From contig NC_026481.1 in NCBI RefSeq assembly GCF_000328475.2, positions 563,315 through 627,314 of the forward strand: a DNA stretch of 64,000 nucleotides, given 5' to 3'. The notes below the pieces were generated by a model, which had not been told where the DNA came from, did no database searches, and saw nothing but the letters and a program-made list of their open reading frames with translations. Each line of letters opens with the position of its first letter. Within the stretch, counting starts at the first letter, position 1. Made by a program: the position numbers and the translations under genes. Positions 229 through 6,757 of the stretch are shown one piece after another. Origin of the DNA: Mycosarcoma maydis. Taxonomy: Eukaryota; Basidiomycota; Ustilaginomycetes; Ustilaginales.

Positions 229-742
229 AGAACCCAAAAACTTTGATTTCTCGTACCGCGCCGATCGAGCCAGTGAAATGAGCATCGACCGATTCGGAGT
301 CGGCATAGTTTACTGTTAAGACTACAACGGTATCTAATCGTTTTCGATACCCTAACCTTCGTTCTTGATTAATGAAAACATTCTTGGCAAATGCTTTCGC
401 AGTAGGAAGTCTTTGCACAATCCAAGAATTTCACCTCTAGCGTGCAAATACTAATGCCCCCGGCTGTCCCTTTTAATCATTACGGCAGTTCTAGAAACCA
501 ACAAAATAGAACCGCACGTCCTATTCTGTTATTCCATGCTAATATATTCGGGCCTATGGCCTGCTTTGAACACTCTAATTTTTTCAAAGTAATAGTCCTG
601 GTTCCGGACCACCCGAGGGCGGCCGTTCACCAAGAAGGAAGTCTCGGACCGTCAAGTACATGCAATTAAGCAGACCCAGCGTCCGAGACCAAACTTCAAC
701 TACGAGCTTTTTAACTGCAACAACTTTAATATACGCTATTGG
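167..742 (-). rRNA. 18S rRNA, middle segment (between LINE insertion and group I intron)
   Basis: Reading right to left, this matches conserved 18S blocks: the helix after the 530 loop, AGAGGTGAAATTCTTGG, ACTGCGAAAGCATTTGCC, the AGATACCGT region, TTTTTGGGTTCTGGGGGGAGTATGG, and ACTTAAAGAAATTGACGGAAGGGCACC just before the intron. The segment is interrupted at its 5' side by the retrotransposon and at its 3' side by the group I intron. A few normally invariant positions differ, including one base in the universal NS4 primer site near 189-194, while one variable helix (TTTGCAC paired with GTGCAAA) is compensated. As it stands the gene copy cannot give intact 18S RNA unless the LINE is absent from the transcript. 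Confidence 0.93.
722..742. repeat. Target-site duplication, left copy (21 bp)
   Basis: The 21 bases beginning AACTTTAATATACG and ending TATTGG are 18S sequence. They recur exactly at 6737-6757, on the other side of the element. This is the expected footprint of target-primed reverse transcription. Confidence 0.95.
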
Positions 743-914
743 ATCGAGATTTCCAGAATTTTTTATACAGGGGTGGGGCACGCAACCATGCCGACCCATC
801 AGGGAATCGAACCCTTCTGCCTGTGCCCTGTTGAACATTTGCCGACAAGATCCTTTGTGGTGGAGTGTTATAGGGTACCTCGACCAGGATAGCTTGTCCC
901 CAGTTTTGGACATT

Positions 915-3900
915 TTAGGAGGTAGGTGGCAGAATTTCCATGACGGAAATAGCAGCCCTAGCGGTAGAGGGGGGTTGTCCCCAAGTGAGTTTGAAGGCTT
1001 CCACATTGTAGGTCTTATTCGTGTAGAGCGAATTAAGTGACAACAAGCGGTCCTCTTGAAATCGGTTGCGCAACAGCGTTAGGAAGAGCGCACGGATTGA
1101 AGCTGGGAATAGGGCTGTTAGATCTTCACTATAGCTCCAGCGGAGATAGGAAATCCAGATTGACCACACGGCCGTTCCGAAAAGTACTTTCCAGCGGCGA
1201 GCGTGGAAGCGGTCAGATACGGGCGCGAGTGCCAGCCAGCAGGCTAGGTCATGTCGGGATTCAATTTGGGGGAAGGCCGGTTTCGCTGTATTCGGATCAG
1301 TGATATCCCAGGCCTTGTCCCATATGGTTCGTACCAGACACCAAAGGTGTTGTGCCGCAGGGCACTCTATCCAGAGGTGTTCGATGGAAGAGGGTATAAT
1401 ACAATTAGGGCAGATCTGAGACTCACGAGGGAGCCAGTGGAGGTCTTGCCCGATTTTTACCTTGGCGTGCAGGAGTCTCCAGAGGAGATCGCCCTGCTTT
1501 GGGGTCAGGAACTCATGCCTGGCTGCTCGCCAGATCATAGCTAAATTTCCCCGTTTACCGGTATGGTTCGTGTAAATTTGGAGGATTGGTTGAACCCGAG
1601 CATCGTAGTTCACTTCCTTGGTTTTTTGGCTCACTAATTGGCGATAGATTTCACGGAAGCGAAATTTATGTAGTGGGGCCATCTTTTTATGATCCCCGCT
1701 CCCCAGCGACAGGCAGAGCTGGTCGCTTGTGGAGGAGGTATATAACGAGGTATCATTTAGCAGTTCTAGCCAAGGCGCAGGAAGGTCACGAATCAGATTC
1801 GTAATCGCCTGTGTCATGGCTTGAGTTTTGGAGGCAGGGAGGGTAGCCGGCAGTATAACTGTCCTTGTCCCTGGATCCCAGACCTCTCCGATTGAGGAGA
1901 TACCTAGCTCCGCCAAAAATCGAAACGAGAAATTGGAGAAGCGACGCGCGCCTTGTCCAGGGCGGACTGTGAGATCGCGGTGGTACCAGAAGTTAATATT
2001 CAGCACGTCCTGCTTGGTCTTAGGTGGACCAATGGAGATCGTATCCGAATCAGATTTAAGAAGGCGGAGCCAAGGAATCCACATATGACGGATGCCCGAG
2101 GGAAGTTCGCTCATCTTGAGATCACGGCTCGAGACCCGCTGAACCCACGGTCGGGTTATGACAGAGAGGATTTCGCCCCGTGTGCGGGTGTGGAGTTTCG
2201 CCAACAGCCTTCGTTGGATTTGCACCCAAGGTAAGTCGTCGCGAGATTCAAGTTTTGCTACTGCCTCGGCACTGAGTGCCTCGATCACACAACTGAGGTC
2301 AAAACTGCCAATGCCACCCTTTTCCGGTGGGAGAAGGGCGTGGAGGTCGTGTATTTTATGTAGCCATTTTTGGTCCCAAATAAAGTCATAATATATTTTC
2401 ACAAGCGACGAAAGCGTCTGTGGACTAATTGGGATAAATTTCAGGTGGTATCTAGGGATGGAGAACATGAGGCTATTCGCCACCATGATTCGTCCTTTGA
2501 GCGAGAGGTGAGCCTTGGACCATCGAGTGGCAATGGTCTCAAAGGTCAGGCGTACGCTATCCCAGAGGTTTTGTATTTGCACTTCGGTATTCGTCCCTAT
2601 AGGAACGCCTAAGTGGAAGTACGGGTTATCAGGAGATACGAAGGAGACCTCAGGTATAGTAATTGGTGGGGGATTCCCGACCTTGAGGATACTCGATTTA
2701 TTCCAGTTAATTTGTGCGCCGGTGCCTTCGCAGAAATCCTGCAGAATACTACGGGCGAGATCCACCTCAGTCTGGTTTTTAAGGACCAGCACGGTGTCAT
2801 CCGCATAGCAGACAGCTTTTATGGGCGCGGAGTTTGGGATGGTGATTCCTTCAATTTCGGAGGTTTGTATTTTCCGGATAAGTGGTTCTAGGAAGAGGAC
2901 ATAGAGAATACAGCTGAGGGGGTCTCCCTGCCGTACTCCACTTCGGACCGGAAAAGGTTTGCTGGCGAACCCATTAACCATGACTTTTAATTTGACATTG
3001 GCATACAGGGCTTTGATGGCGTGTCGAATAGGTTCGGGGAGCCCAACCTGTTTCAGCAGCCGCCAGAGGAATTTGTGGTCAACCCGATCATATGCTTTCT
3101 CTTGGTCAATGAAGAGAAGGTAGACACCTTCAGTTTCAGAGCCTTGGTTTTCGTCAATGATGGATTGGACCAGTCGAATATTGTCATCAATTAGCCTTCC
3201 TGGCAAGAAGGCGTATTGGTGCGGACCAACGACCCCGTTGAGTGCAGAACAGAGCCGTTTGGCTAAGATACCAGTGAACAGCTTGTAATCCGAATTCGCT
3301 ACTGTGAGGGGTCGATAATTTTTAAGGTCCTGTGGGGAGCCTTTGTTTTTGTACAGGATGGAGAGAACTCCAACCGAAAAAGATTCGTCCGCTCGTTCCC
3401 CCTGTAGAAGGGAGTTAAAGAGCTGGGCCAAACCTTCGCACAGGGTTTCTGCATTATCCGAAGAAGACTGGAAAACTTCTTTAAAAAGCTCAACTGGCAA
3501 ACCATCTGGTCCAGGCGACTTACCCGTAGCCGCCCCTTTAAGTACAGCTTTCACCTCAGTGGAGGTTATGGGAACAGATGTGGATTCGCTCAGAGCCCTC
3601 GGGAGTTTCGGCATGAGGTCGATGAAGTTGCGACCCTTGCTGGGATTTGTGAGACGTACCGCGAAGAGAGACTTGTAAAAGTCAGCTGCAACAGCCGGGA
3701 GATCCTGAGGATTTTCCACTAGCGTGTTGGTGCGGCTCGATTTTAGTGCTGAGACATTCGAGAGTGAGGAGGCGGAGCAGCGAGAGTAAAACCACTTGGT
3801 GGGTTTTTCCCCAAGTAGGCGGTTCTTGGCCATTGCACTATAAGCAAAAGCTTTGGTTGCATACTCGTTCAGCTGACTTTCTCTCACTGTGGCAGCAGCA

Positions 3901-6532: not shown

Positions 6533-6736
6533 GTTAAAAGAGGCTCCCTTTGGGTAGGTTACAGCTTTTATGACCTCTTAGCGGCCGATCTTTAAATCGT
6601 GCTCGGGCCCCTCGACCACGACAAGGTGGGTCTGTTTCACGTTTAGCTCGTTTGAAAAATAAAGTCTGAACGCTTTAGGGCAATGCCCTCCTGAGTTAAT
6701 AAACTGTAAACAAAAATATACTCAGGCCCCGAGGGG

Positions 6737-6757
6737 AACTTTAATATACGCTATTGG
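6737..6757. repeat. Target-site duplication, right copy (21 bp)
   Basis: This is an exact second copy of the 18S sequence at 722-742. Uninterrupted 18S is rebuilt by joining 742 to 6758. The next base, 6758, is g where the conserved 18S has a (CAGCTCCAATAG on the sense strand), so the junction carries one substitution. Confidence 0.95.

What the first reader, a model, noticed from the sequence alone, without database searches (positions are those of the whole stretch)
722..6757. Intact two-ORF LINE inserted inside an 18S rRNA gene with a 21-bp target duplication
Direct reading shows 18S sequence on both sides, an exact 21-bp duplication, and both element ORFs open with complete endonuclease and RT motifs. 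Known rDNA-specific LINEs (R1, R2 in 28S; R7, R8 in 18S) are from animals. A fungal element resident in 18S, beside the 530 loop, would be a new site-specific lineage if other copies sit at the same position. With one copy, chance insertion is not excluded. The missing poly(A) tail fits rDNA-specialised elements, but that is inference.
Basis: partly seen in the sequence, partly recalled or inferred. Interest (0 to 1): 0.8.

Follow-up and report, generated by a model that had tools for sequence, protein, structure and literature searches.

The report
Intact LINE inside smut 18S gene
A complete jumping gene of the LINE type sits inside a small-subunit ribosomal RNA gene of what appears to be a smut fungus; it is the only copy found in the assembly and may belong to a lineage that lives in ribosomal DNA, as some animal elements do, but that specialisation is not yet proven.

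Summary
A 5,994-bp element (743-6736, minus strand, same sense as 18S) interrupts an 18S gene between exact 21-bp duplications. ORF1 (507 aa from ATG) and ORF2 (1,354 aa; endonuclease, RT, weak C-terminal zinc motif) are open, two bases apart. There is no poly(A). ORF2 matches L1 far better than R2. Searches of the 19.66-Mb assembly found no other copy; the 18S is the only one found apart from three short fragments. An ORF1 variant lies on contigs of at most 6,053 bp; 6,054 is predicted for an insertion whose flanks also exist empty, so an assembly chimera is unlikely. Homologues occur in Ustilago hordei and Melanopsichium, but their insertion sites could not be seen. Best reading: an L1-like LINE inserted by target-primed reverse transcription, probably of an rDNA-specialised smut lineage (0.55). 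Main rival: one chance insertion preserved in rDNA (0.3). Recurrence at the site, the defining test, could not be made.

The parts
1..721 (-). 18S rRNA gene, part 3' of the insertion, cut at the window start, which adjoins an N run in the contig
   Evidence: Rfam RF01960; N run C4:559476-563314
722..742 (-). 3' copy of the 21-bp target site duplication
743..6736 (-). LINE element, 5,994 bp, apparently full length, same sense as the 18S gene
743..914 (-). 3' UTR, 172 nt, no poly(A); contains a small predicted hairpin (AGGG-UUCGAUU-CCCU) that resembles a tRNA T-arm (my reading)
   Evidence: the UTR as a whole folds no better than shuffles (z -0.03)
915..4979 (-). ORF2, 1,354 aa: endonuclease (Pfam 12-245), RT (548-765, with YADD), weak C-terminal zinc motif (1139-1213)
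4980..4981 (-). 2-nt gap between ORF1 stop and ORF2 ATG; suggests translation of ORF2 by stop-restart (inference)
   Evidence: sequence
4982..6505 (-). ORF1, 507 aa from ATG: zinc-knuckle-like C-x2-C-x3-H-x5-C and, near the C-terminus, C-x2-C-x3-H-x4-C (motifs by my reading of the alignment), and a predicted long helix 170-211
   Evidence: structure model poor (mean pLDDT 37.4, only about residues 168-236 above 50)
6506..6736 (-). 5' UTR, 231 nt; no HDV-like ribozyme recognised
   Evidence: fold z -1.10 for 6506-6757
6737..6757 (-). 5' copy of the 21-bp target site duplication
6758..7341 (-). 18S rRNA gene, part 5' of the insertion; the duplication is 18S nt 585-605 counted from 7341

Best explanation
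This is a full-length, probably recently inserted LINE of an L1-like lineage found in smut fungi. Its endonuclease nicked the antisense strand of an 18S gene just past the 530-loop sequence (between 18S nt 584 and 585). The free 3' end primed reverse transcription from the end of the element RNA, and the sense strand was cut 21 nt further on, which made the duplication (target-primed reverse transcription). The family probably keeps itself inside the rDNA array, where one interrupted unit among many intact ones costs little, and it may be expressed as part of the rRNA transcript because it lies in the same sense. Shown: anatomy, duplication, open ORFs, no second copy or relic found in the assembly. 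Inferred: nicking order, co-transcription, recent insertion (from the exact duplication and open ORFs), rDNA specialisation.
For: Exact 21-bp duplication, sense orientation, open ORFs. ORF2 matches human L1 ORF2p at E=7.7e-54 against 4.3e-23 for the best R2. Part of that gap comes from the longer L1 alignment (residues 7-874), but an L1-type chain (named RNA-directed DNA polymerase) aligned only over 409-874 still has E=2.8e-45. Endonuclease part alone: of 14 PDB sequences listed at E<=10, 9 are L1 endonuclease, L1 ORF2p or the LR1/LTX chains (best 4.7e-8) and 5 are exodeoxyribonucleases; no R1- or TRAS1-type endonuclease is listed (that such structures are in the PDB is recall). No second copy found in 19.66 Mb by whole-element DNA, 3' end, ORF2 or ORF1, although the assembly keeps fragmentary pieces of other LINE-like RTs (L015, L017). 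The k=31 assembly-graph contig predicted for an insertion whose flanks also exist empty is 6,054 bp; the longest contig listed for the 99%-identical ORF1 is 6,053 bp (2 contigs) and for ORF2 5,969 bp (4 contigs). The source 'lgn' is read by me as Logan, whose contigs hold distinct 31-mers by construction (PMC12424806, passages). The cluster representatives differ from the window by 9 of 1,354 and 6 of 507 residues, so at least one other allele exists.
Against: Only one insertion is visible, so recurrence at the site is not shown. The absence of other copies rests on one assembly, from searches whose tool calls repeat counts lower bounds and says that DNA search skips very common words. Relatives lie on contigs of 665,961 bp (U. 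hordei P0063) and 923,001 bp (Melanopsichium), so they may sit outside rDNA; another U. hordei copy (P0002) is on a 7,113-bp contig. The two U. hordei proteins are only 83% alike where they align and look incomplete. The 7 other 18S sequences found are all empty at this site; they come from records titled as bacteria and say little about smuts. No HDV-like ribozyme, which R2 elements use to free their 5' end, was recognised.
Confidence: 0.55

Rival explanations
1. A LINE without strict target preference landed once in this rDNA unit by chance and survived there because an interrupted 18S copy is tolerated.
For: One copy only; related ORFs in two smuts on very long contigs; the unit appears to lie at the array's border, where I would expect weak selection and homogenisation (inference).
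Against: No copy or relic found elsewhere in the assembly, although other LINE-like relics persist; no poly(A) tail.
Confidence: 0.3
2. The lineage prefers rDNA, or a short motif found in it, but is not strictly specific to this 18S site.
For: The relatives' long contigs would be compatible with copies in and outside rDNA.
Against: No copy outside rDNA found in this assembly.
Confidence: 0.11
3. Assembly chimera joining an unrelated LINE contig to 18S ends.
For: The unit adjoins an N run, and rDNA is hard to assemble (general knowledge).
Against: A chimera does not create an exact 21-bp duplication on both sides. The longest contig listed for a variant ORF1 is within 1 bp of the length expected for an 18S-flanked copy.
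Confidence: 0.03
4. A mobile group I or group II intron or homing element in 18S.
For: 18S commonly hosts such introns in fungi (general knowledge).
Against: No intron family matched at Rfam gathering score in the window; LINE ORFs and a target duplication are present.
Confidence: 0.01

Closest known systems
L1 (LINE-1) superfamily elements
   Same: Two ORFs; apurinic-type endonuclease and RT in ORF2; ORF2p of human L1 is the best solved-structure match
   Different: No poly(A) end; ORF1 shows no relation to solved proteins or Pfam; sits in 18S; in the RT tree it lies in a different well-supported group from human L1 and the frog and lizard proteins
Tx1-clade target-specific LINEs
   Same: Target-specific LINEs with an apurinic-type endonuclease (PMC4640811, passage); kinship of their RT to L1 is recall
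   Different: No labelled Tx1 RT was available to compare; membership untested
R1-clade rDNA elements (R1, R7)
   Same: Apurinic-type endonuclease (PMC4640811, passage); rDNA insertion, R7 in 18S (from the finding and recall)
   Different: Endonuclease matched L1 and no R1-type structure; no R1-clade RT was at hand for the tree
R2/R8 rDNA elements
   Same: Insertion in rDNA; R8 of hydra in 18S (PMC5035012, passage)
   Different: R2-type elements have a restriction-like endonuclease (PMC4640811, passage) and one ORF (recall); this one has two ORFs and an apurinic-type endonuclease
Homologous smut elements: U. hordei (P0002, P0063) and Melanopsichium pennsylvanicum (P0062, P0004)
   Same: ORF2 63-66% identical over 34-79% of the query; ORF1 of Melanopsichium 44% over 100%
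   Different: Incomplete ORF2 protein records (P0002 and P0063 lack the YADD stretch); insertion sites unknown

Membership tests
LINE (non-LTR retrotransposon, apurinic-endonuclease type) | Endonuclease plus RT in one ORF and target site duplication | tested here: met
L1-like lineage | ORF2 closest to L1 among solved proteins | tested here: met
   L1 ahead of R2 by about 30 orders of magnitude in E-value, partly through a longer alignment
L1-like lineage | RT groups with L1 in a tree that holds labelled Tx1, R1 and Tad members | not tested
   The tree of 62 RTs had only human L1 as a clade-labelled reference; smut group supported, its position among clades unresolved
rDNA-specific (R-type) element | Inserted in a rRNA gene | tested here: met
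rDNA-specific (R-type) element | Several copies at the same rRNA position | tested here: inconclusive
   One copy found in the assembly, one 18S apart from three short fragments; contig lengths are only indirect
rDNA-specific (R-type) element | No or few copies outside rDNA | tested here: met
   for this one assembly; not testable for the relatives
R2/R8 clade | Restriction-like endonuclease | tested here: not met
   Exo_endo_phos at the N-terminus; L1 endonuclease match
R2/R8 clade | HDV-like ribozyme at the 5' end | tested here: inconclusive
   One weak Rfam match, 13 bits, E=8.2, about 90 nt inside the element; a simple topology scan gave 0 hits, but no positive control was run

The most novel reading that the evidence does not exclude
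A fungal, L1-like LINE specialised on one position of the 18S rRNA gene (sense-strand cut between 18S nt 605 and 606 as counted here), shared across smut fungi: an independent origin of rDNA targeting outside animals by a lineage that is neither R1 nor R2.
Probability: 0.4. Interest if true: 0.75.

Novelty: new variant of a known kind. Interest (0 to 1): 0.6.

Why it matters
The rRNA-gene-specific LINEs named in the passages I read are from animals (R2, R8, R9 and planarian LIN families), and R1 and R7 are animal elements by recall. A fungal L1-like element at an 18S sequence that looks highly conserved would suggest that rDNA targeting arose again. It would offer a genetically tractable host for testing how an L1-type endonuclease picks a site, and perhaps an enzyme for insertion at a sequence shared by many eukaryotes. 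(Seven other 18S sequences carry the same 21 bp, but they were found by searching for it.)

Tried and rejected
HDV-like ribozyme at the 5' end: one Rfam match at E=8.2 inside the 5' UTR and 0 hits in a simple topology scan of my own (controls mean 0.1 and 0.05 hits in 20 shuffles each, no positive control); not supported, not excluded. Structured or tRNA-derived 3' end: a 4-bp T-arm-like hairpin, but the 172-nt UTR folds no better than shuffles, and Rfam matches there at E<=10 were far below gathering scores; unproven.

Decay of the interrupted 18S copy: 18 of 549 conserved columns differ, but the same count for the seven other sequences ran from 0 to 102 and the alignment was poor (identities 42-88%); dropped as uninformative.

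Related loci: in viral contigs 52 pattern stretches, 0 confirmed; in bacterial and archaeal contigs 87 stretches, 0 confirmed. 18S target site: 0 in viral contigs, 7 in genome contigs, all 7 empty. ORF1 structure prediction was poor, and a profile search of solved structures gave 0 matches at E<=1. A search for 28S in the assembly did not complete; the 5.8S search gave 0 matches, with 39 of 937 candidates scored.

Papers: searches (open-licence PMC library only; listings capped at 25 of 51, 15 of 20, 15 of 30; 0 papers) listed no title or abstract start that describes a fungal 18S-inserted LINE. The one paper (PMC9410150) was not opened. I read passages only, of PMC4640811, PMC5035012, PMC4081816 (nothing used) and PMC12424806.

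From the RT tree, 8 of 70 sequences offered were dropped for short RT coverage: P0055, P0064, P0065, P0066, P0067, P0069, P0070, P0071. The tool flagged several long branches and an unusual make-up of 8 rows, human L1 among them.

Full report
Observation. The window (G000 contig C4:563315-627314; assembly of 19,664,356 bases in 27 contigs) begins right after an N run (C4:559476-563314; an assembly gap or a withheld stretch, I cannot tell) inside an 18S gene read on the minus strand. Rfam places 18S at 1-751 and 6697-7341. Between them lie 5,994 bases bounded by a perfect 21-bp duplication.

Anatomy. In element sense: 5' UTR 231 nt, ORF1 507 aa, 2 nt, ORF2 1,354 aa, 3' UTR 172 nt, no poly(A). 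ORF2 has Exo_endo_phos, RVT_1 and a zf-RVT match below its cut-off. In the alignment of 8 ORF2 sequences the rows that cover them keep GDWN and DH of the endonuclease, and GKSPG.DG, QEKA.D.V and RQGDP.SC of the RT. Departures: P0005 has Asp for the endonuclease Glu, P0002 reads LDQIYV and P0007 IDRLYV for LDRIYV, P0007 has FADD, and P0002 lacks the YADD stretch; P0004 covers none of the endonuclease. ORF1 has two zinc-knuckle-like motifs by my reading and a predicted helix, but no Pfam or solved-structure relation. Protein clusters of 28 members (ORF2) and 23 members (ORF1), with representatives 99% identical to the window, show that the element has been assembled from other data. The representatives differ from it by 9 of 1,354 and 6 of 507 residues.

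Copy number and place. Searches of the whole assembly with the element DNA, ORF1, ORF2 and the 3' end each find only this copy; the tool calls its repeat counts lower bounds and skips very common words. A search with the 5' part of 18S finds this gene and three fragments of about 75-100 bp, 79-87% identical, near contig ends; the 3' part is found only here. No rRNA reached gathering score in the 28 kb fetched on the far side, of which 3,839 bases are N; the last stretch before the N run reads to me like a degenerate LTR retrotransposon (a family search was not completed). On the near side the first listed ORF of at least 250 aa, 11380-13476, matches CNNM. So this is probably the outermost unit of an array whose remainder is not in the assembly (inference). 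Six RVT_1 matches exist in the assembly. Besides this element, L015 and L017 resemble other LINE-type proteins and are fragmentary; by my reading L013 is LTR-type and L014 telomerase-like; L016 was not classed.

Is the junction real? A chimera would not create the duplication. In addition, for an insertion whose flanks also occur uninterrupted, a 31-mer graph predicts one contig of 6,054 bp. The longest contig listed for the 99%-identical ORF1 is 6,053 bp (2 contigs), and for ORF2 5,969 bp (4 contigs). A copy in unique DNA would normally run on into its flanks. This is indirect: the contig sequences were not seen, the comparison was made after the fact, and it does not tell how many rDNA units are interrupted.

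Relationship. The best solved relatives are L1 ORF2p (E=7.7e-54), with R2 at 4.3e-23; the endonuclease alone matches L1 endonuclease and no R1-type enzyme is listed. In the RT tree of 62 sequences the window groups with P0001, then U. hordei (P0002, P0063), Melanopsichium (P0004) and P0003 (100/99 for these six), then P0005/P0006 (97/76), with P0007 outside them (100/97 for the group of nine). Human L1 lies in another group with the named frog and lizard proteins and two unnamed ones (99/96). Without labelled Tx1, R1 or Tad members the clade name stays open.

Mechanism. The element RNA was probably reverse transcribed from a nick in the 18S antisense strand at the upstream edge of the duplication, and the sense strand was cut 21 nt downstream. 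Lying in sense inside 18S, the element could be transcribed with rRNA. No HDV-like ribozyme was recognised to free its 5' end. The 2-nt spacing of the ORFs suggests stop-restart translation. These steps are inferred.

Verdict. A real, intact, target-primed LINE insertion in an 18S gene. That it represents a site-specific rDNA lineage is slightly more likely than not in my judgement, because no copy or relic was found elsewhere in the assembly and the tail is not poly(A). Recurrence at the site, the defining feature, could not be tested. The searches of the open-licence library (some listings capped) listed no paper on it; subscription papers and Repbase were not searchable.

Noticed in passing
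L003, L004, L005 (C23:11343-11442, C13:605441-605515, C21:470320-470419): Three 18S-like fragments of about 75-100 bp (79-87% identical) near contig ends, matching 18S at window 6778-6872, just upstream of the insertion site but not including it.
   Followed up: partly
window 803-816 and 6965-6978: The element's 3' UTR shares an exact 14-mer (GGAATCGAACCCTT) with 18S in the same orientation; 0 of 300 shuffles of the UTR gave such a match. It also resembles a tRNA T-arm/B-box (recall).
   Followed up: partly
window 6758 (18S base before the duplication): C in 18S sense here, T in 7 of 7 other 18S sequences found: either native to this species, or a mutation in the interrupted unit that would make the duplication 22 bp.
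   Followed up: partly
C4:559476-563314, just before the window: N run of 3,839 between this 18S and a stretch that reads like a degenerate LTR retrotransposon; the four N runs inside the window are each 100 long.
   Followed up: partly
L015 (C17:103837-104172), L017 (C14:3142-3366): Fragmentary LINE-like RT pieces similar to P0058/P0069, not to this family.
   Followed up: no
P0062/P0004 contig (923,001 bp): The Melanopsichium homologue sits on a contig about as long as this window's contig C4 (884,984 bp); synteny next to rDNA is possible but untested.
   Followed up: no
window 27136-27237, minus strand: Rfam tRNA match spanning 102 nt (48.7 bits), longer than a plain tRNA, so possibly intron-containing.
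   Followed up: no
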